Of a stretch of DNA of 28,433 nucleotides, positions 75 to 26,778 are shown one piece after another. The stretch lies in IMG/VR virus record IMGVR_UViG_3300047557_000833, positions 1 to 28,433 of that record; one strand, 5' to 3'. The DNA comes from a virus. The position numbers and the translations under genes were made by a program. Position 1 is the stretch's first letter. The number at the start of each line of letters is the position of its first letter. The notes under the pieces are model-generated. The model saw only the letters and a list, made by a program, of their open reading frames with translations, did not search any database and was not told where the DNA came from.

Positions 75-260
75 ATGGAAGAAAACAACGAACCGTACAT
101 TTCGTACAGTCAACTCACCACCTGGCTCCAGTGTGGGGAAAAGTACCGCTTGACCCGTATCCTGAAACTGGAAGAAGACCCAGCCTGGTACTTCGCTGGT
201 GGTACGGCAGTGCATTCTGCTGCTGACGCCATTGACCATGCACTGTTGGAGGGCAAGTGA
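75..260 (+). CDS. Cas4/RecB-like PD-(D/E)XK exonuclease, N-terminal part
   Basis: This 61-residue product matches the start of Cas4/RecB-type PD-(D/E)XK nucleases seen in many actinobacteriophages: SYSQLTTWLQC near residues 10-20, then GGTAVH at 42-48, whose His belongs to the first active-site motif. Cys20 corresponds to the N-terminal ligand of the iron-sulfur cluster in this family. The metal-binding Asp, the catalytic Asp-x-Lys and the other three cysteines are absent here and lie in the next frame, which starts at a GTGA overlap. On its own this piece should not be an active nuclease. Either two polypeptides assemble, ribosomes shift -1 near the overlap, or a base is missing from the sequence. 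The ATG at 75 fits a leaderless transcript from the promoter just upstream. Confidence 0.75.
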   Translation: MEENNEPYISYSQLTTWLQCGEKYRLTRILKLEEDPAWYFAGGTAVHSAADAIDHALLEGK

Positions 261-931
261 GTGACGTAGCCTACGAGGCTGGCATGGAAGCATTCCGTGC
301 CTCACTCGCCAAAGCGAAAGCCGACAACGAAGGCAAGAAGTGGCGTGCCGGTGGACGGGCAAGCAAGAAGTACCCGTACAAGGAAGACGAATCGTGGTGG
401 ATGGCTGAAGGTCCAAGCATGGTTCACGCCTGGTACAACTGGCGCAAGACCAACCCGAACCTGGAGATCTGGCACACCGAACAAGGCGTACCAGCCATCG
501 AGATCGGGGTCACTGTCCGGTTGCCTGGTGACGTGCTGATGAAGTCCGTCATCGACCGTGTGTTCGTGGACAAAGTTTCCGGTCGCACCATGATCGTGGA
601 CTTGAAGACCGGGCAGCCACCTAAGTCTGGTCTGCAACTGGCCGTGTACAGGACAGCGTTGCTGGAGCAGTTCGGTGAGGCACCCACGTACGGTGCCTAC
701 TGGATGGCACGCAGTGGGACATTGGACACTGTGCATGACCTGCGCGAGTACCCCGAGAAGATGATTGAGCGTTGGCTACGGGACGTGAAACGTGCCATTG
801 ATGCACGGATCTTTGTTCCGAACATGTCGAACTTGTGTGCTACGTGTGGGGTGCTGCAGCACTGCTATGCTTACGGTAACGAAAAGTACCGTCCCGATTT
901 TGAGGATGATCTAGTGGAAGGAACGAACTGA
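257..931 (+). CDS. Cas4/RecB-like PD-(D/E)XK exonuclease, C-terminal part
   Basis: This 224-residue product carries the catalytic half of the nuclease begun at 75. It has Asp100 (SVIDRV), Asp115-x-Lys117 (IVDLKTG) and a Q-x3-Y motif at 127-131, the usual order in Cas4/RecB-type enzymes. Cys194, Cys197 and Cys203 form the C-x2-C-x5-C end of a probable 4Fe-4S site, whose fourth ligand would be Cys20 of the preceding product. The GTG start overlaps the upstream stop (GTGA), a common coupled arrangement in this operon. Such enzymes degrade or trim DNA ends during phage recombination and replication. The fold is clear; whether the active form is a two-chain complex, a frameshift fusion or the result of a sequencing error is not. 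Confidence 0.8.
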   Translation: MSDVAYEAGMEAFRASLAKAKADNEGKKWRAGGRASKKYPYKEDESWWMAEGPSMVHAWYNWRKTNPNLEIWHTEQGVPAIEIGVTVRLPGDVLMKSVIDRVFVDKVSGRTMIVDLKTGQPPKSGLQLAVYRTALLEQFGEAPTYGAYWMARSGTLDTVHDLREYPEKMIERWLRDVKRAIDARIFVPNMSNLCATCGVLQHCYAYGNEKYRPDFEDDLVEGTN

Positions 932-1507: not shown

Positions 1508-2287
1508 GTGAGGTCACTTGACCGGGCCGTAAGGTCCATCGACAAGAAGGCAATGGTCATCCCAATGCCATTCAAGTCTTGGAGTGACGCCAACATTTCC
1601 GTGCGCCGGGGTGAGGTCAGCATGATCGCTGGCCCACCCGGTGCCGGGAAGTCCACCGCTGCGTTAGCGATAGCGGTCAGGTCACAGGTACCCACCTTGT
1701 ATGCCAGTGCCGACTCTCACGAGTCCACTATGGCTATCCGCTCCCTGGCTATGGTGTTGAACCTGCCCCAGGCTGAGGCGGAGGAGAAGATGGCGAACGA
1801 CCCACAGTGGGCTAGTTTGATTTTAAAAGACAACATTGGCCACATTCGTTGGATGTTTGATGCGTCCCCCACGTTGGCTGATTTGGAGGACGAGATCAAC
1901 GTGTACCGTGAGGTGATGGGTGCCAACCCTGAACTCGTGGTCGTTGATAACGCGGTGGATGTGACGCACGAGTCGGGTGACGAGTTCTCTTCACTGCGGT
2001 CGCTGATGCGTGAGGTGAAGTGGTGGGCTCGTGACACGTCCGCCGCGTTCCTGATCCTGCACCACACGAGCGAAGGCTACGAGGGCTACCCTTGTCCTCC
2101 GCGTGCAGCGTTGCACGGAAAGATCGCCCAAGTGCCTAGCCTGATTGTGACTCTCTCGTCTGACCAGCCTGGGTTGATGGCTGCCGCCGCTGTGAAGAAC
2201 CGTTACGGTCCCGCTGACGCTACCGGTAAGACTGCCGTGTGGATGGATTACTTCCCGACGACGATGACCCTGAAGGACATGGACTGA
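1508..2287 (+). CDS. RecA/DnaB-like ATPase, probable replicative helicase
   Basis: A 259-residue P-loop ATPase. Walker A is GPPGAGKST at residues 42-50, Walker B is LVVVDN at 143-148, a polar H-motif (LILHHTSEG) lies at 182-190, and KNRYG at 230-234 resembles the Lys/Arg finger region of DnaB/RecA-family motors. The length fits a helicase core without the DnaB N-terminal domain, as in many actinobacteriophages. It would unwind DNA in the replisome together with the primase encoded 1 kb downstream; a RecA-like recombination ATPase is the alternative. The GTG start follows the upstream TAA directly, and the stop overlaps the next ATG. Confidence 0.8.
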   Translation: MRSLDRAVRSIDKKAMVIPMPFKSWSDANISVRRGEVSMIAGPPGAGKSTAALAIAVRSQVPTLYASADSHESTMAIRSLAMVLNLPQAEAEEKMANDPQWASLILKDNIGHIRWMFDASPTLADLEDEINVYREVMGANPELVVVDNAVDVTHESGDEFSSLRSLMREVKWWARDTSAAFLILHHTSEGYEGYPCPPRAALHGKIAQVPSLIVTLSSDQPGLMAAAAVKNRYGPADATGKTAVWMDYFPTTMTLKDMD

Positions 2288-2649: not shown

Positions 2650-3119
2650 TCATAGACCTAGAACCCTGGGAATATGAGCATGTCAATGTTGTTGGAATCG
2701 GTAGGTACGTCGCAAACTGGGAAAAGCAAGACGCCGACCACTACGACAAGAGCAGAATGCAGGATGATAGAACGGCACAAGTCGCTGCCGCTGCCTGCGA
2801 ACTGGCCGTAGCAAAGTACACGAACCAGTATTGGTCTGGTCATGTTTGGCCGAAAGAAAGCCACGACAAGTATAAAAAAGTTTCTGACGTTGGACTTAAC
2901 ATTGAGGTTAGAAGGGTAAGGACTAGGAACAGTGTCGCTGTTCGTGAACGTGATCTTGGCCGTAACCTTGTGCTGTGGGCGGCAAGAGCCATCGAGCCGG
3001 AGTTACGGTCCGTTGAACTTTTAGGATACTTACCCCATGATGAGGCTTGGAATGCTGGCGAGGTAAGCCAGTTTCAGGGAACAAGATACGTGTCCTTAGA
3101 AAGGTTGATTAAACCATGA
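2646..3119 (+). CDS. Putative PD-(D/E)XK-like protein of atypical codon use
   Basis: A 157-residue protein of unproven function. The order Glu52 (AACELAVAKY), Asp81 (SDVG) and Glu87-x-Arg89 (NIEVRR), followed by a strand-rich segment and a LLGYLP turn, resembles the PD-(D/E)XK nuclease fold with Arg in place of the catalytic Lys. This is a pattern judgement, not a confirmed hit. Ten of its 14 arginines are AGA or AGG, while the adjacent resolvase uses none, and A/T-ending codons are frequent, which suggests recent acquisition or different selection. It overlaps both neighbours by ATGA junctions, so it is fully built into the operon. Confidence 0.65.
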   Translation: MIIDLEPWEYEHVNVVGIGRYVANWEKQDADHYDKSRMQDDRTAQVAAAACELAVAKYTNQYWSGHVWPKESHDKYKKVSDVGLNIEVRRVRTRNSVAVRERDLGRNLVLWAARAIEPELRSVELLGYLPHDEAWNAGEVSQFQGTRYVSLERLIKP

Positions 3120-3271
3120 TCGCTTTCAGGTGGCTACAGTTCCGGCACTGGCTCGCATCCACAATCATCGGGTACCACATCCACGACGCCATTGATGAAG
3201 CCTACGACCAGGGCACACGGTGGGGTCAAATGCAGACGTTGAAGAACATGCGAAATGCCCCCACGATTTGA
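3116..3271 (+). CDS. Small hypothetical protein
   Basis: A 51-residue frame that starts in the ATGA overlap with the gene before and ends 17 bases inside the primase zinc-finger gene. The N-terminus is aromatic and basic (FRWLQFRHWLAS) with a short hydrophobic stretch; the middle is acidic and helical (IHDAIDEAYDQG). It may be a small amphipathic or membrane-edge protein. No family recognised. Tight coupling on both sides is the main argument that it is translated. Confidence 0.6.
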   Translation: MIAFRWLQFRHWLASTIIGYHIHDAIDEAYDQGTRWGQMQTLKNMRNAPTI

Positions 3272-3632
3272 CATCTGGCCCGTGCTAGAACACTACGGCT
3301 GGAACCTACCGTCACCCCGTGGTGTGTGGCAGTCAGTCAAATGCCACGTTCACGAAGACCACCACGCATCCTGCCGTGTCAGCGAGGACGCTGGCATGGT
3401 GAAGTGTCTCGCGTGCGACTTTAAAGGTGACGCCATATACGTAGTTCGGCACTATGAAGGGATAGGTTACAAGGATGCTGTCGGCAGATGCGAGGAGATT
3501 ACTGGGGGAAGCGGAGCGGGCGTACTACAGTCAAGTAGGGGATATCGCAGAGTATCTGCTGGGTCGCGGAATCGACGGGGAAGCCGCACGTATACACCAC
3601 CTCGGCTACGTAAAAGAACCGATGATCGGTGA
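3255..3632 (+). CDS. DnaG-type primase, CHC2 zinc-finger part
   Basis: Residues 1-84 form a DnaG-like zinc-binding domain: Cys30, His33, Cys51 and Cys54 in VKCHVHED...VKCLACDFKGDA, followed by a helix ending in RCEEITG. This domain helps recognise the template and start primer synthesis. After about residue 84 the frame continues as a basic, low-complexity tail that does not look like a primase, while the neighbouring +1 frame becomes a good TOPRIM domain from the same point. The switch coincides with five Gs at 3504-3508. Removing one G joins the two frames into a primase of about 278 residues. The tail is therefore either an artefact or the unshifted product of a frameshifting gene. Confidence 0.75.
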   Translation: MPPRFDIWPVLEHYGWNLPSPRGVWQSVKCHVHEDHHASCRVSEDAGMVKCLACDFKGDAIYVVRHYEGIGYKDAVGRCEEITGGSGAGVLQSSRGYRRVSAGSRNRRGSRTYTPPRLRKRTDDR

Positions 3633-4092
3633 TGACGAAATGCGGGGACGCTTGGCTATCCCCTATCTCACCCCTACGGGTCCAGTCGATATACGTTTTC
3701 GATCCATCCACCCCGACGACTCCCCCAAGTATTTGTCCCGCGCCGGGTCACAGCAACACATCTACAATGTGCTTGCCTTCCAAGAAGACTCAGATATCAT
3801 GTGTGTTTGTGAAGGTGAGATTGACACGATCATCGTTAACACAATGGTTGGCATACCTGCCGTGGGTATGCCTGGTGCGAACGGTTGGAAGAACTGGTAT
3901 GCCCGTGCGTTCGCGGACTACCGGAAAGTATTCGTCCTAACAGACGGCGACCAGGCGGGAAGGGACATGGGTAAGAAGATCATGCAGGCAATCGACGTGG
4001 CTGTCGTGGTGCCCATGCCTGACGGTATGGACGCTAACGAAGTGTATCTGGCTGAGGGGCCAGACGGTATCAGGAAGAGGTTAGGGTTGTGA
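3475..4092 (+). CDS. DnaG-type primase, TOPRIM part
   Basis: This frame holds the TOPRIM catalytic domain of a DnaG-like primase: EGEID at residues 113-117 and TDGDQAG at 156-162 provide the acidic metal ligands, after a YLLGRGIDGEAA segment typical of the preceding domain. It synthesises RNA primers with the zinc finger encoded just upstream. The open frame can begin at ATG 3475, 158 bases inside the zinc-finger gene, but the only ribosome-site-like sequence (AAGG) touches that ATG, which is a poor start. A fusion with the upstream frame through the G5 run at 3504-3508 gives a more natural protein. The stop overlaps the next GTG. Confidence 0.78.
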   Translation: MLSADARRLLGEAERAYYSQVGDIAEYLLGRGIDGEAARIHHLGYVKEPMIGDDEMRGRLAIPYLTPTGPVDIRFRSIHPDDSPKYLSRAGSQQHIYNVLAFQEDSDIMCVCEGEIDTIIVNTMVGIPAVGMPGANGWKNWYARAFADYRKVFVLTDGDQAGRDMGKKIMQAIDVAVVVPMPDGMDANEVYLAEGPDGIRKRLGL

Positions 4093-12659: not shown

Positions 12660-12837
12660 ATGGCATCAACCTATCCGCAACTACCCACGTCTCACCAATT
12701 CCACCAACAGGCTTCACTAGCACGTCAACCCTGCCGAATTGCTTACGCGCATCATCAACCATCACAACGATAGTCAAACCCTGCACGTCCATTAGGTATT
12801 CCTGACCAATCATGCTTGCCATTTCTTTCACGTTCAT
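12649..12837 (-). CDS. Small hypothetical protein
   Basis: A 62-residue protein from ATG 12837, which overlaps the ArdC stop by one base (TAATG) and has GGGAG eight bases upstream. An N-terminal helix (NVKEMASMIGQEY) precedes a strand-rich core (GLTIVVMVDDARKQFG, VDVLVKPVGG), like a small SH3- or KOW-like barrel. Possibly a partner of the antirestriction protein, by position only. Confidence 0.65.
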   Translation of the reverse strand: MNVKEMASMIGQEYLMDVQGLTIVVMVDDARKQFGRVDVLVKPVGGIGETWVVADRLMPYEY

Positions 12838-13706
12838 TACTTTGTCTCCCATTCTGTTCCGATGATTCTGTCGAATGCTTTCTGTGCCTGTTGTGCCGCG
12901 CCGATGATTAGGTTACGGTCATCCTTTAATGCCCGCAACCATCCACCAATATACGCTGCACTATTCTGTGCATCCACGGCGATACCACCATGCGACAGTA
13001 GCATCACCGCACCTAATTCTGCCACCAATTCTTCCTTAGCATAGTCCGGTGAACCGAACGCTGCAGTCTTCACATTCTCTGCCAGTCTTCCTAGCCTAGA
13101 CTTATGTCCAGTGCTATGCGTCATCTCATGGAATAGAGTCTCCGCGTAGGCTGCACCATCATGGAACGATTCCACCAGTGGCATCGTGATGGTGTCAGTG
13201 CTAGGCGTGTAATATGCCCGGTCACCAGGAACATGGTGCAACGTGGGACCATCCTTATAGCCTTGCCAGATATCCCGCACCACGTCATCGACCACCACCG
13301 TACGCTCCTCAGGCTTGCCACGGTAGGCATCCAGTCCATCGCACTGGTCAAGGTTAAACACACTAAAGTGCCGCAGCATGGGCACTTTCTTCACCTCACC
13401 AGTGGCCTTATCTTTCACGTCTAGTATCTTCCAATACACCACTGTCGTGGCTTTCTCGCCCTTTCGGACGTTGCCACCACGCTCACTAGCCTGCTTATAG
13501 GTAGTCCATAGGTTACTTTCGTAGCCTTGCGACTGGCATACCATGGCTAGAATGAACGTGTTGATACCACGGTACGGCTTGCCAGTCGACAGACTGACAG
13601 GAACGTACGCGCTACCATTCCACGGCTTGCGCCACGGCACTATGCCCTTTTCTAGTTCCGTGACCATCATGTCGGTCACGTACTGTGCTAGGTCAGTGCG
13701 ATTCAC
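12837..13706 (-). CDS. ardC: ArdC-type antirestriction protein (ssDNA-binding domain plus zincin peptidase domain)
   Basis: A 289-residue protein with the two-part structure of ArdC. Residues about 3-120 match the N-terminal ssDNA-binding domain (GIVPWRKPW at 21-29, GKPYRGIN at 42-49, RKGEKATTVVYWK at 81-93). Residues about 140-289 form a zincin-like metallopeptidase with HEMTHSTGH at 193-201 and downstream Glu226/Glu230 in KEELVAELG. ArdC proteins protect incoming DNA from host restriction, and the zincin half is typical of polyvalent proteins carried into the cell. It is the first gene after a consensus promoter (13761-13789), with a leader containing a hairpin and AAAGGATGGTGG before its GTG start. 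Confidence 0.88.
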   Translation of the reverse strand: MNRTDLAQYVTDMMVTELEKGIVPWRKPWNGSAYVPVSLSTGKPYRGINTFILAMVCQSQGYESNLWTTYKQASERGGNVRKGEKATTVVYWKILDVKDKATGEVKKVPMLRHFSVFNLDQCDGLDAYRGKPEERTVVVDDVVRDIWQGYKDGPTLHHVPGDRAYYTPSTDTITMPLVESFHDGAAYAETLFHEMTHSTGHKSRLGRLAENVKTAAFGSPDYAKEELVAELGAVMLLSHGGIAVDAQNSAAYIGGWLRALKDDRNLIIGAAQQAQKAFDRIIGTEWETK

Positions 13707-21599: not shown

Positions 21600-21754
21600 T
21601 GCCTCGCTTTGTGGACAATGTGGACGCTATTGTCAACAAAATTGGCACGGTTAACGTCGGACTCGTTTGGGGTTTGGCGAATGTTAACTGGGCTAACGAC
21701 GCGGAACGCGACGACTTTGTTGACATGCTGATCATGCCAAGAGAAGGAATGTAG
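21599..21754 (+). CDS. Small hypothetical protein
   Basis: A 51-residue protein starting at TAATG, with GGAG upstream of the junction. It is amphipathic, with paired motifs NVDAIVNKIGTVNVGLVWGL and NVNWANDAERDDFVDML. It shares one base with the GTG of the giant gene that follows. No family recognised. Confidence 0.68.
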   Translation: MPRFVDNVDAIVNKIGTVNVGLVWGLANVNWANDAERDDFVDMLIMPREGM

Positions 21755-24700
21755 TGGCTCCTAAGGATAAGAAGCCACCGAAGTCTTGGAATAATACTAG
21801 ACCGCTCGACTGGGGCGGTGTAGCGACACCAGCACTTGCGGTACCGCCAGAGGAGGTTAATCCTTTAGCGGAGCCGGAAAACTTTGATGTTACCGCGCCC
21901 GTAACTGGCCGTCCCGATGTTCCCGAGTTAGAGGAGCAGATCCCGCAGAACGTTCGGGATAACTCTATCATCGGCGAATTCATGAATATCATGGACAACA
22001 TTACGCCAGATGACATGGGCGGAATGATCCGTGGCACGTCGGGCTGGCTTGGCGAAGTTCCCTTGTACGAGGAGACCGTCGGTAAGATCCTGGGTGTCCC
22101 GCTGTCTGCAGCGGAGAGTGTGCTTAACGCTGTGAACTGGGGCAGCGAGCAGATGAACCACTTGGGTGCAGCACTGTTTTCCGCGTTCCCCGGTGGCATT
22201 GATACTTTGACTTGGGATCAGTCACAGGACATTAGTCTTGGTCAGGTTGCTACTGCGAATGCGGCGATTAACAATAGTCGCGGTATTGGTGGCTGGCTGA
22301 TTAACGCCGCAACTTTGCAACTTCCATTTTCTGTCGCCACGGCGGTAGGCAAGAGCCAAGACCCAGACAACATTCTGTATTCCACACAGTTTGATATTCT
22401 TGACGAGGAAGATCGTGCTAAGGCTTTCGAATCTGGCGGGATGGGCCAGGTCACTTCCGGTTTTGCTGACGCCATTTGGCTTGTTGCGGCAGACCCAACG
22501 ATCATTGGCGGCAAGGCCACAAATATTATTCGACTTGGAACCAAGGCTGGTGAGTTTGGTGGAGTCACCAATCAGGCTCTCCGAACAACTAATCAAGTCC
22601 AGCGTTGGAGTAACGAGGTTCGTCAACAGGGCGAACTGATTCAGGAACTTGGCGTCGAGGGTGCACGTAACAGTGGGCGTTTGACCTCGCAGGGCGAGTA
22701 TCTGATTGCCGCTATGGAGGGCAAGGCAGACGATCTTGTAGAACATACGTGGGTGAAATCGTCCGCTAACCAGCGCGAGACTCGCGCACTTCTTGGAGAA
22801 ACAACTGTCGATGACCCGGTTGGTGCGGCACTTGTTGCTGGCGCCATGGGTGGTTCTAGCGAGGCGTGGGCTGCCCTTAGGCAGCACGATCCAGACATGT
22901 ATGTGCGTACTGCTGAGGCTTTTGGTGTTAACGTGTTTGCCCCTGTTGGCGACAGGACGCGCAGGGCGCTTGGAGCATCAGAACTTACCGATGATCAAAT
23001 TCGTATTCAAGACGATATTAACATTCAGCGTCTTGCCGAAAGACCGGATCTACTGCCGGAGTTTAGAGACATAAAGGACATCGATCCGTCAGAGATTGCT
23101 GCGGGTCAAATGATTTCTCGTGGCGGTTCAAGGTTCGGACCTCGCACTGTTCGCGCCAAGAACGCCTGGAAGACAGGCAAAGCACGCACACAGTTTGAGA
23201 ACAACGCATTCAAAAAGTCATCTTCCACGGTATCAACTGCGGAAGAGGGCCACTATGTTTATGATTTTATTTCTGGCGTTTCTGGCTCGATGCCGTTACG
23301 TGTTGTTCGTTGGCTTGGTCAAGGCACGCCGACTGGTGTGATCCAGATTAAGAACGGCACCAACGCGAACATGGTGCTTCGTGACTACACTTCTTGGCTT
23401 CGCAAGTCACCCATTGACTCGGCTCAGGCATCTAATTATCTTAATCGCTTTGCTGCCGCACGTACACCCGACCAGCGTAGTGCGATCCTAAGGGAGTCTG
23501 AGGCTGAGGCTGCTCGCCTTATTGCAGCAAAACATGGGGTATCGGAGGCTGCGGCACAAAGCGCTTATAACAGTTACGCGGCAAAGCGTGCAGCCCTGAT
23601 GGATACTGTCAAGAAAAGCGAAACTAAATTTGCCAAAGATCCAGAAACCGGAGAACCGGTAAAGGTCCCAGGTTTCTACGCGGAAATTGATCCAGCGTAT
23701 GCGATGCTTGATACGAAGGTTTTTAATCGCGTCATTGGCGGTAATGCTAGTTGGTTGAAGACGTGGGAAGATGCCACCACTATTGGTGACGAACTGAACA
23801 AGTACTGGAAACTTTCTGTCCTTCTTCGCCTTGGCTACACTCAGCGTAATATTGTTGAAGGTGCGCTTCGCTCGTTTGCCGTGCTTGGCCTAATCGCAGC
23901 AAATCCGGCTGCCTTCGGTCGCGTGCCAGGAAATGCTTATAACTATATTGGCGCTAGGCGTGCGCTGAAAAAGTCCAAGATTCAAGAGCGTGCGCTGATG
24001 ACATCGTACGAGAATCTTATGGATGCTCGTAGAACCCTTGATGAGGCTTTGCAAGTTTCTCGTTACGACGAAATGATGCAACTTAGACGCCAAGCGGATG
24101 AACTTTACAAAGAGGCGCAAAAGATTCGCGGACGCGCCGCTGGTGGGGCTCAGGTTCCAGCAAAACCGTTGACAAAAGATCAGCAAAAAAAGATAGCGGA
24201 TCTTAATAAAAAGCGTCAAAGACTTATTCAAAAGTCAATTCAGATTCGTAATAATTTTTACGAACCCATGCTGAATGAGTTAAATGAAATTCGTGGAACC
24301 ATTCGTGGTATCCAGAATGAAATTGACGACATCGGCGGTAAACTTGAATCTTTAACTTCTGTCGCGCGAGAGAAGAATGCTCGCCGTAAGCGTGGTGGTT
24401 ACTCCGAAAATATTGTCGGTGGGCAGCGTTTGCAGGGAGCATTCCAGGGTAGCGAAGGAGCGATGGCTGCCGTTAACTCTTCGGCTGATCGCACAACCTA
24501 CATGTCGATTGATCTTGCGTTCAATAGCAGAATCAATGCTTACGGCAACTCGCCTGATTTTGTTGAGATTGACCCAAGAAAAATTAGCCGAAAGCAAATG
24601 CCTCGCTACTTTGATGAGGCGGCTCTTAGATTTAACAACAGGTACCGGGATGATCCTACAGGTCGAATGGTACTTGAAGGCCAGTCCAACGGATACATTG

Positions 24701-26778
24701 CGCAGTGGCTAGATTCAGATGCCGGAAAATCCTACAGGCAAGCCATGTCCTTGAAGGGTCGTCCCCTTAACACGAGAGAAGAAATCAACGCTTACGTTGA
24801 TGAACTTAGGACACGTCTTGATTACGAGATGCCAGCGGACACAAACATCCGAGCAATGGCACTTGATCACGAATTAACGCCGGGAGAAGTTGCTGCCGCG
24901 TTTCGCGGCAAGGAACTACCAATAATCTATGGCCGTATTAGTGACGACGCGCCAACAAACCTTGTCGTTCGTGGTAAGCGTGGACTTGATACTTTAAGTG
25001 ACAAGATTATGCGTGGTATCGGCTCATTCCCCGAAACCAAACTGTTGCGTCACCCGTTCTACAATCGCGTGTACATGGACCGTCAGGCACAACTGTGGCG
25101 TCTTGCTGCAGAACAAGGCGCAGACATGTCTAGCAACATTGTCAAAAACAGAATCAATCGCAGTTCGCATGACTTTGCGTTGAAGGCTACAACGCAGACA
25201 ATGTACACAATTGAGGAACTGTCTAACGCCGCTGTCATGCTGCGCTACATTTCACCGTTCTTCCCGGCTTTTGAGAACAGTCTCCGAACCTGGGGCCGTA
25301 TCGCATGGAACAACCCGGCAGTTATCGGTGAAGGCAACCTGCTGTGGAATATTCCCAATAACCTTGGTTGGGTTGTTGACGAGGATGGCAACAAGGTTGA
25401 CCGTTCAAACTTCCTCATTGACGAGAACCATTTCATTCAGTGGCCGGAGCCTGTAGCAAACGCTTTGTTGAAAAAGTTCGGGCCGTTCACTGCTGGCGAG
25501 AGTTTGCGTTCACGTCAACATGGTTTGAACATTATCTTCCAGGGCGGTCAGTGGTGGTTCCCCGGTGCTGGTCCTGCGATTAGTTTGCCCCTCGCGTATG
25601 TTCTTCGTGGCAAGCCGGAGGATGCTGAGATTCTTCGCAACACCGTTGGCGAAGAGGTCTTCATGCAACTGGTTCCTAGCGGTAACCCTAACGCTGATCT
25701 TGTGGATGCGATCCTGCCAACGTGGGGTCGCCGCTTGAAGCAAATGTGGTCTGGCGATTCTAGCGACCAGGCGTTCTTGTACAATTGGAATCAGATCATT
25801 GAGGACGAGTACATTAACGCACAGATCGAGGGTCGTCCGTTTACCGAGAAGGACGCGGAACGTGTCAAGCAGAAGGCTGATGCCTTTTGGCGCTGGCAGT
25901 TGGTGTCCGCTGTGGTCATGCCGTTCCAGTCCAGTATTGCGTCCAAGTTCCAGGTTCAACGCGACAAATGGAACCAGTTGATTGACAACCAGGCATTGTC
26001 GTATCAAGACAAGATCAAGGCATTCAACGAAGAGTTTCCTGAGTTTGGTGATGCACTCATGGCTATCACTAGGAGCGGGTCATACACGGAAACTAAGTTG
26101 CAGCCTAACCTTATGACGTGGCAGCGTATCTACAAGAACAAGGATCTGGTTAACAACCTGTACGCTATTGATCCTGAACTTGTTGGCATGTTCGGCAACA
26201 TGGGTTCGTTTGAAGATCCGTTCTCTCGCGCTGTGTATGGCGAGTTCGGCAGTATGACCATCGGGCCGAATGATGCTCGTGTGCGTCGCATGATGAAACC
26301 CGACGAGATTATCCGCAATAATCAGATCAAGGATGGTTGGACTGAGTTCTGGCGGGTGAAGGATTACGCCGAGGACAAGGCTGAGCAGTTGGGTTACAGT
26401 AGCCTGCAGGTCAAAGAGGCGGAAGATTTGCGCAAGGCTATTGATGAAGCGGCCATGAAACTGGAGGAACGCTACCCAGCCTGGGGCGAGGAGCGCCGCC
26501 TGTACATGGACAAACTCCCAGCATTCATCCAAGGTGCTAGGTTGATTGTGCAAAACGCCGAACTTGTTGACGAGGATACCACTGTCGCGGCTTTGTCTGA
26601 TTACTTGGTTGTTCGTGAACGTGTCGCTGACGCACTGGCTAACGCAGAGAACGATGAAGAGCGGGAGCAGATTCGCCTTATCGGGTACGAGGCCGCTTGG
26701 AAGTTGAGGAAACAGGATATCGGTTTTGCTGATTTCTATGACCAGTATCTTTACCGTGACGACTTTAGGAAGATTTGA
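21754..26778 (+). CDS. 1674-residue polyvalent/internal-virion-like protein
   Basis: The largest gene of the window. The N-terminal 60 residues are disordered and Pro-rich. Residues about 690-725 are hydrophobic and aromatic (KLSVLLRLGYTQRNIVEGAL). Residues about 740-873 form a long Lys/Glu/Gln-rich coiled coil. Residues about 1163-1193 (MLRYISPFFPAFENSLRTWG) and about 1267-1287 (WWFPGAGPAISLPLAYVLRG) look membrane-active. The C-terminal 350 residues are helical and charged. No protease, lysozyme or polymerase motif was found. The organisation resembles large polyvalent or ejection proteins that travel in the head and enter the host with DNA. GTG 21754 overlaps the preceding stop by one base. 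Confidence 0.75.
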   Translation: MAPKDKKPPKSWNNTRPLDWGGVATPALAVPPEEVNPLAEPENFDVTAPVTGRPDVPELEEQIPQNVRDNSIIGEFMNIMDNITPDDMGGMIRGTSGWLGEVPLYEETVGKILGVPLSAAESVLNAVNWGSEQMNHLGAALFSAFPGGIDTLTWDQSQDISLGQVATANAAINNSRGIGGWLINAATLQLPFSVATAVGKSQDPDNILYSTQFDILDEEDRAKAFESGGMGQVTSGFADAIWLVAADPTIIGGKATNIIRLGTKAGEFGGVTNQALRTTNQVQRWSNEVRQQGELIQELGVEGARNSGRLTSQGEYLIAAMEGKADDLVEHTWVKSSANQRETRALLGETTVDDPVGAALVAGAMGGSSEAWAALRQHDPDMYVRTAEAFGVNVFAPVGDRTRRALGASELTDDQIRIQDDINIQRLAERPDLLPEFRDIKDIDPSEIAAGQMISRGGSRFGPRTVRAKNAWKTGKARTQFENNAFKKSSSTVSTAEEGHYVYDFISGVSGSMPLRVVRWLGQGTPTGVIQIKNGTNANMVLRDYTSWLRKSPIDSAQASNYLNRFAAARTPDQRSAILRESEAEAARLIAAKHGVSEAAAQSAYNSYAAKRAALMDTVKKSETKFAKDPETGEPVKVPGFYAEIDPAYAMLDTKVFNRVIGGNASWLKTWEDATTIGDELNKYWKLSVLLRLGYTQRNIVEGALRSFAVLGLIAANPAAFGRVPGNAYNYIGARRALKKSKIQERALMTSYENLMDARRTLDEALQVSRYDEMMQLRRQADELYKEAQKIRGRAAGGAQVPAKPLTKDQQKKIADLNKKRQRLIQKSIQIRNNFYEPMLNELNEIRGTIRGIQNEIDDIGGKLESLTSVAREKNARRKRGGYSENIVGGQRLQGAFQGSEGAMAAVNSSADRTTYMSIDLAFNSRINAYGNSPDFVEIDPRKISRKQMPRYFDEAALRFNNRYRDDPTGRMVLEGQSNGYIAQWLDSDAGKSYRQAMSLKGRPLNTREEINAYVDELRTRLDYEMPADTNIRAMALDHELTPGEVAAAFRGKELPIIYGRISDDAPTNLVVRGKRGLDTLSDKIMRGIGSFPETKLLRHPFYNRVYMDRQAQLWRLAAEQGADMSSNIVKNRINRSSHDFALKATTQTMYTIEELSNAAVMLRYISPFFPAFENSLRTWGRIAWNNPAVIGEGNLLWNIPNNLGWVVDEDGNKVDRSNFLIDENHFIQWPEPVANALLKKFGPFTAGESLRSRQHGLNIIFQGGQWWFPGAGPAISLPLAYVLRGKPEDAEILRNTVGEEVFMQLVPSGNPNADLVDAILPTWGRRLKQMWSGDSSDQAFLYNWNQIIEDEYINAQIEGRPFTEKDAERVKQKADAFWRWQLVSAVVMPFQSSIASKFQVQRDKWNQLIDNQALSYQDKIKAFNEEFPEFGDALMAITRSGSYTETKLQPNLMTWQRIYKNKDLVNNLYAIDPELVGMFGNMGSFEDPFSRAVYGEFGSMTIGPNDARVRRMMKPDEIIRNNQIKDGWTEFWRVKDYAEDKAEQLGYSSLQVKEAEDLRKAIDEAAMKLEERYPAWGEERRLYMDKLPAFIQGARLIVQNAELVDEDTTVAALSDYLVVRERVADALANAENDEEREQIRLIGYEAAWKLRKQDIGFADFYDQYLYRDDFRKI

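What the first reader, a model, noticed from the sequence alone, without database searches (positions are those of the whole stretch)
3255..4092. Primase split across two frames at a G5 run
The CHC2 zinc finger lies in one frame and the TOPRIM domain in the +1 frame. The upstream frame loses primase character and the downstream frame gains it at GGGGG (3504-3508). Skipping one G gives a smooth join, ITG followed by EAERAYYSQ, and a protein of about 278 residues. The separate ATG at 3475 has a poorly placed ribosome site. This could be programmed frameshifting, a genuine two-gene primase, or a homopolymer error.
Basis: partly seen in the sequence, partly recalled or inferred. Interest (0 to 1): 0.6.

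Follow-up and report, generated by a model that had tools for sequence, protein, structure and literature searches.

The report
Two overlapping genes encode phage primase
This phage makes its DNA-copying starter enzyme (primase) as two separate proteins from two overlapping genes read in different frames, an arrangement shared by over a thousand phages of actinobacteria, and it is neither a sequencing error nor, most likely, a ribosomal frameshift.

Summary
The split is real: a CHC2 zinc-finger ORF (3255-3632) and a TOPRIM ORF (3475-4092), the second in the +1 frame, overlapping by 158 nt. It is not an error: all 140 overlapping relatives examined have the same +1 relation, and 1453 phage records hold the TOPRIM half, mostly annotated as two 'DNA primase' CDSs. 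The G5 run is not the mechanism: it is broken (GGC GGA) in relatives 95-98% identical, and a run of 5 or more G occurs in only 5 of 134 relatives. Three findings favour two proteins. ORF1 synonymous variation collapses at the ORF2 start codon, about 10 codons before the G5. ORF2 synonymous variation stays low until the ORF1 stop, so the ORF1 tail is itself selected. Four relatives carry the halves as non-overlapping genes and keep both the ORF1 tail and the ORF2 N-terminus. The predicted ORF2 structure starts with a helix that a frameshift join would cut. Best reading: a two-subunit DnaG-type primase, with the zinc-binding subunit acting in trans on the polymerase subunit (inferred). The arrangement is known from annotation; the dual-coding evidence appears new. 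A minor frameshift product cannot be excluded.

The parts
3255..3632 (+). ORF1: zinc-binding (CHC2) primase subunit, 125 aa; ligands C30, H33, C51, C54 (3342-3344, 3351-3353, 3405-3407, 3414-3416)
   Evidence: Pfam Zn_ribbon_DnaG E 1.3e-8; phrog_360 E 1.5e-24 over residues 5-122; fold match to B. stearothermophilus DnaG zinc domain 1d0q and Aquifex DnaG 2au3; C30, C51, C54 invariant in the 36 sequences of A5 and H33 in at least 90%
3510..3629 (+). ORF1 basic tail (SGAGVLQSSRGYRRVSAGSRNRRGSRTYTPPRLRKRTDDR), translated in frame 0 over ORF2
   Evidence: ORF2 synonymous variation reduced up to the ORF1 stop; stays open longer than recoded ORF2 (P 0.026 for the window); mostly low-confidence, disordered in the model; similar tail kept where genes do not overlap
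3456..3467 (+). Purine-rich stretch with GAAGGG (3456-3461) and AGGT (3464-3467), probable weak Shine-Dalgarno region of ORF2
   Evidence: duplex energy -7.1 kcal/mol vs mean -5.0 for recoded ORF1, P 0.067
3475..4092 (+). ORF2: RNA-polymerase (TOPRIM) primase subunit, 205 aa, own ATG at 3475; acidic residues E113, D157, D159
   Evidence: Pfam Toprim_3 E 6.4e-9; model pLDDT 95; fold match to DnaG catalytic cores, E 1e-11 to 1e-8, and T7 gp4
3475..3508 (+). First 11 codons of ORF2, coding in both frames
   Evidence: ORF1 synonymous differences 0.118 here vs 0.379 upstream; helix 4-18 of ORF2 starts here
3504..3508 (+). GGGGG run proposed as shift site; not conserved
   Evidence: no downstream RNA structure beyond chance (z 0.05)
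1508..2287 (+). DnaB-like helicase, RecA domain only, likely primosome partner (no DnaB N-terminal domain)
   Evidence: phrog_243 E 2e-65; aligns to 329-581 of the 621-position DnaB profile phrog_19

Best explanation
This is a two-subunit DnaG-type primase encoded by two genes that overlap by 158 nt in different frames. ORF1 is translated in frame 0 to its own stop and gives a CHC2 zinc-binding subunit with a basic, mostly disordered tail. ORF2 starts independently at ATG 3475 and gives the TOPRIM RNA-polymerase subunit. Shown here by sequence: both frames are under protein-coding selection through the overlap, from the ORF2 start to the ORF1 stop. Inferred: the zinc-binding subunit acts in trans on the polymerase subunit, helping to choose and hold the template, and its tail docks on ORF2, on DNA or on the DnaB-like helicase, which lacks the usual DnaB N-terminal domain.
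For: 1) ORF1 synonymous differences fall from 0.379 to 0.118 at the ORF2 start (P 5e-31; window clade 0.295 to 0.109, P 0.003), so ORF2 codes from its start codon and not from the G5. 2) ORF2 synonymous differences are 0.270 in the overlap and 0.383 after it (P 6e-20; window clade 0.130 vs 0.291, P 1e-6). They jump at the ORF1 stop: last 10 codons 0.22, next 10 codons 0.405. 3) Four relatives (L038, L039, L142, L111) have non-overlapping genes and keep both the ORF1 tail (GYVPAWKRK*, SYVPPRLRRRQA*) and the ORF2 N-terminus. 4) An ATG, GTG or TTG lies between the last in-frame stop and the ORF2 start in 131 of 134 relatives, and the Shine-Dalgarno pairing there exceeds recoded controls (23 of 80 at P<=0.1, binomial 2e-6). 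5) The ORF1 tail stays open longer than recoded ORF2 predicts (126 vs 60 nt; 32 of 87 at P<=0.1, binomial 2e-11). 6) ORF2 folds on its own with high confidence, with a first helix (4-18) that spans the proposed join.
Against: Cluster A mycophages show no overall constraint on the ORF1 tail (0.353 vs 0.331), only on its last 10 codons. Three of 134 relatives (L033, L037, L131) lack ATG/GTG/TTG at the ORF2 start; in A1-type mycophages an ATC sits at the Shine-Dalgarno-spaced position. The Shine-Dalgarno region in the window itself is weak. One genome note calls a cluster A primase a programmed frameshift (PMC5824014), without data shown. No protein-level data were available.
Confidence: 0.85

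Rival explanations
1. Programmed +1 ribosomal frameshift joins the two ORFs into one primase of about 278 aa, with the shift at or near the G5 run.
For: The +1 relation is invariant in 140 of 140 overlapping relatives; a join gives a plausible domain order; a few relatives have no canonical ORF2 start; cluster A annotators have proposed it.
Against: No conserved slippery site: window ACT GGG GGA; L002-L006 ACT GGC GGA; L007 TCT GGA CGA; L012-L017 ACT GAA GGA; cluster A TCT CCG GGA and others. ORF2 frame constraint starts about 10 codons upstream of the G5, and the last in-frame stop is a median of 5 codons upstream of the ORF2 start, leaving almost no room for an earlier shift. Frame 0 remains selected after the supposed shift. 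No RNA structure downstream (z 0.05). The join would cut helix 4-18 of ORF2 and leave 50 residues between zinc finger and RG motif, against 59-80 in the four fused primases where I could place both motifs.
Confidence: 0.07
2. Both: two separate proteins are the main products, and a small, functional frameshift fusion is also made.
For: Long overlaps allow it; nothing in sequence excludes rare slippage at GGG GGA in the window.
Against: No conserved site or stimulator; the separate-gene relatives L038, L039 and L142 could not make such a fusion in the same way and still keep both genes.
Confidence: 0.06
3. Homopolymer sequencing or assembly error in a normal single-gene primase.
For: The junction sits beside a G5 run.
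Against: Independent contigs and more than a thousand isolate genomes have the same split without the run.
Confidence: 0.01

Closest known systems
Two-ORF 'DNA primase' pairs of actinobacteriophages (phrog_360 N-terminal half with the C-terminal half; D29 gp58/gp57, Alma gp60/gp59, Streptomyces phage Izzy gp39/gp40, Cutibacterium phage gp31/gp30)
   Same: Same two domains, order, +1 frame relation, overlap length (118-187 nt past the ORF2 start in most) and replication-module setting.
   Different: About 43% identity or less to the isolate phages. The window belongs to an uncultivated IMG/VR clade. Tail constraint is stronger here than in cluster A.
Streptomyces phages Amethyst and Issmi (Arquatrovirinae) primase pair
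   Same: Homologous ORF1 with tail and homologous ORF2 N-terminus.
   Different: Genes do not overlap; stop TAA, then GGAGGAG, then a TTG start.
Bacterial DnaG and phage T7 gp4 primase region
   Same: CHC2 zinc domain and TOPRIM polymerase core with matching folds.
   Different: On two polypeptides here, and no C-terminal helicase-binding domain.

Membership tests
DnaG-type primase | CHC2 zinc-binding domain with Cys-His-Cys-Cys ligands | tested here: met
DnaG-type primase | TOPRIM catalytic core with conserved Glu and DxD acidic residues | tested here: met
   E113, D157 and D159 invariant in A4; Pfam Toprim_3; fold match to DnaG cores
DnaG-type primase | Both domains on one polypeptide | tested here: not met
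   Two ORFs in different frames, both under coding selection
DnaG-type primase | C-terminal helicase-binding domain | tested here: not met
   ORF2 ends with the TOPRIM-core helix at residue 205
DnaG-type primase | Template-dependent RNA primer synthesis | not testable with these tools
   needs biochemistry
Two-ORF actinophage primase pairs | CHC2 ORF followed by an overlapping TOPRIM ORF in the +1 frame, replication module | tested here: met
   140 of 140 overlapping relatives; phrog_360 full-length match
Programmed +1 frameshift genes | Conserved slippery sequence at the switch | tested here: not met
Programmed +1 frameshift genes | Downstream frame lacks its own translation start | tested here: not met
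   131 of 134 have a start codon; Shine-Dalgarno pairing above recoded controls
Programmed +1 frameshift genes | Zero-frame sequence beyond the shift site free of selection | tested here: not met
   overall and in the window clade; in cluster A only the last 10 codons are constrained
Programmed +1 frameshift genes | Stimulatory RNA structure downstream | tested here: not met
   window 3504-3584, z 0.05; single sequence only
Programmed +1 frameshift genes | Fusion protein detected | not testable with these tools
   needs proteomics

The most novel reading that the evidence does not exclude
The primase of these actinobacterial phages is an obligate two-subunit enzyme whose zinc-binding subunit works only in trans. 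Its C-terminal tail was created by overprinting of the polymerase gene, became functional (docking on the polymerase, helicase or DNA), and was kept even when some lineages later separated the two genes.
Probability: 0.45. Interest if true: 0.6.

Novelty: new member of a known kind. Interest (0 to 1): 0.42.

Why it matters
It settles, at sequence level, how a primase annotated as two overlapping pieces in over a thousand phages is probably made, and it corrects the notion of a frameshift at the junction. It also provides natural primases in which the zinc domain and the catalytic core are separate proteins. That makes the question of zinc-domain action in trans, raised for DnaG (Corn et al. 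2005, known to me and seen here only in reference lists), directly testable in laboratory phages.

Tried and rejected
Homopolymer error: rejected, since relatives without the run have the same split. G5 as slippery site: rejected, not conserved. RNA stimulator downstream: none. A fused close relative: only L144 reads through in one frame, but its CHC2 region carries an in-frame TAA and it looks like a decayed prophage, so it was not used. ORF1 tail basicity as proof of function: weak, because most of it follows from the ORF2 frame (recoded mean +5.8 vs observed +7.4; Stouffer z 6.6). Tail motif [YF]xPx(1-4)R alone: only 37 of 134, and in overlapping genes partly a by-product of ORF2 'LGxV'; only the non-overlapping relatives make it telling. 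The synonymous-rate control in the separate-gene trio L038/L039/L142 has few sites and gives mixed results (3/38, 9/32 and 8/33 in the homologous region against 21/146, 25/140 and 23/138 after it).

Full report
Observation. ORF1 (3255-3632) carries the CHC2 zinc finger and ORF2 (3475-4092) the TOPRIM domain. The window is a 28.4 kb virus record, and the pair lies in a replication module with a PD-(D/E)XK exonuclease, a RecA-domain DnaB-like helicase and a RusA-like resolvase.

Not an artefact. A protein search with ORF2 finds 1453 phage records (Mycobacterium, Streptomyces, Propionibacterium/Cutibacterium, Rhodococcus, Gordonia), most of those listed being annotated as two DNA primase CDSs (and records). 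I fetched further relatives from IMG/VR and from prokaryote genomes and located the CHC2 ORF beside each TOPRIM ORF with profiles. In all 140 overlapping cases ORF2 is in the +1 frame, and the ORF1 stop lies 118-187 nt past the ORF2 start in all but two (283 nt in L033 and L037). Four relatives have non-overlapping genes. The fused hits are distant DnaG-like proteins or a decayed prophage (L144).

The G5 is incidental. Codons at the junction are ACT GGG GGA in the window, ACT GGC GGA in L002-L006, TCT GGA CGA in L007-L011, ACT GAA GGA in L012-L017, and TCT CCG GGA, TCT GTG GGA, TCT TCG GGA or TCT CCT TCA in cluster A. A run of five or more G occurs in 5 of 134 relatives. There is no RNA structure beyond chance downstream of it.

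Both frames are coding. I compared synonymous differences in nearest-neighbour pairs (61 pairs from 134 sequences; greedy matching, so pairs share no sequence). For ORF1, the wobble position is the second codon position of ORF2. ORF1 synonymous differences are 0.379 upstream and drop to 0.118 from the ORF2 start onward, before the G5 is reached (P 5e-31; window clade 0.295 to 0.109, P 0.003). If ORF2 were entered only by a shift at the G5, these ten codons should vary like the rest of ORF1. For ORF2, the wobble position is the first codon position of ORF1. ORF2 synonymous differences are 0.270 in the overlap and 0.383 beyond it (P 6e-20; window clade 0.130 vs 0.291, P 1e-6). The change comes at the ORF1 stop codon: 0.22 in the last ten codons, 0.405 in the next ten. 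So the ORF1 tail is translated and selected to its end. Cluster A is an exception for most of the tail (0.353 vs 0.331), though its last ten codons are constrained.

Independent initiation. In 131 of 134 relatives an ATG, GTG or TTG lies between the last in-frame stop and the start of conserved ORF2 sequence, and that stop is a median of 5 codons upstream. The upstream Shine-Dalgarno pairing is stronger than in versions of ORF1 recoded with synonymous codons (mean -10.3 vs -8.3 kcal/mol; 23 of 80 at P<=0.1, binomial 2e-6), with GAGGAGGTGAG-type sites a few bases before the start in many mycophages. In the window it is weak to moderate (-7.1 kcal/mol, P 0.067). The ORF1 tail also stays open longer than recoded ORF2 would allow (126 vs 60 nt; 32 of 87 at P<=0.1, binomial 2e-11; window P 0.026).

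Separate genes in relatives. Streptomyces phages Amethyst and Issmi and a Streptomyces prophage (L142) have ORF1 ending in ...GYVPAWKRK-TAA, then a GGAGG-type site, then TTG starting ORF2 as LAEH(E/D)PLTPLSTSQKEMLEEA. In overlapping Izzy the ends lie over the other gene: ORF1 ends GGGYQPRWRRD and ORF2 runs VEHEPLVPLSTSQREALEEA. IMG/VR locus L111 has ORF1 ending SYVPPRLRRRQA at a GTGA junction with ORF2. The tails and the ORF2 N-termini therefore exist as protein sequence where no overlap forces them.

Structure. The ORF2 model (mean pLDDT 95, pTM 0.91) is a DnaG/T7-type polymerase core, with best PDB matches to DnaG catalytic domains at E 1e-11 and T7 gp4 at E 2.5e-8. Its first helix spans residues 4-18, so a join at residue 12 would cut it. 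The ORF1 model gives a CHC2 domain matching DnaG zinc domains, ending in helix 72-86, then a mostly disordered tail.

Mechanism. Best supported is a two-subunit primase made from two overlapping genes by independent initiation. The zinc subunit acting in trans is inferred. DnaG zinc domains have been reported to act in trans between subunits (Corn et al. 2005, prior knowledge, seen here as a citation only). The primase lacks the DnaG helicase-binding domain and the phage helicase lacks the DnaB N-terminal domain, so the basic ORF1 tail may be the tether; this is a guess that the proposed assays can test. The tail probably arose by overprinting, because its residues follow partly from the ORF2 'LGxV' codons, and was retained when the genes were later separated in some lineages (inference).

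Known or new. Two-piece primases are routine in actinophage annotation, and one genome note calls the cluster A primase a programmed frameshift (PMC5824014). I found no experiment. The window is a new member of that kind; the dual-coding evidence is the added knowledge.

Noticed in passing
75-260 and 257-931 (+): The PD-(D/E)XK/Cas4-like exonuclease is also split into two genes (61-aa N-piece and 224-aa C-piece, GTGA overlap). All 32 relatives with both pieces in view have the same split, and in L181, L187-L189, L192-L195 and L200 extra DNA of about 150-575 nt separates the pieces.
   Followed up: partly
L033, L037, L213, L214 (A1-type mycophages MetalQZJ, Aeneas, Lesedi, Trouble): No ATG/GTG/TTG at the expected start of the TOPRIM ORF (L033, L037); all four have an ATC a few bases after GAGGAGG. 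Annotators start the gene well inside the domain. ATC initiation or another mechanism is possible.
   Followed up: partly
3116-3272 (+): Small ORF of 51 aa that starts at the stop of the 2646-3119 gene (ATGA) and overlaps the ORF1 start, suggesting a translationally coupled operon.
   Followed up: no
12837-13706 (-): Protein with ArdC N-terminal domain and zincin-like metallopeptidase domain, an anti-restriction type protein.
   Followed up: no
1508-2287 (+): DnaB-like helicase consists of the RecA domain alone, without the DnaB N-terminal domain.
   Followed up: partly
L144 1300-2094: Streptomyces prophage copy in which CHC2 and TOPRIM parts read in one frame, but the CHC2 region has an in-frame TAA; looks decayed.
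   Followed up: yes
21754-26778 (+): 1674-aa ORF in the structural region with no Pfam match.
   Followed up: no
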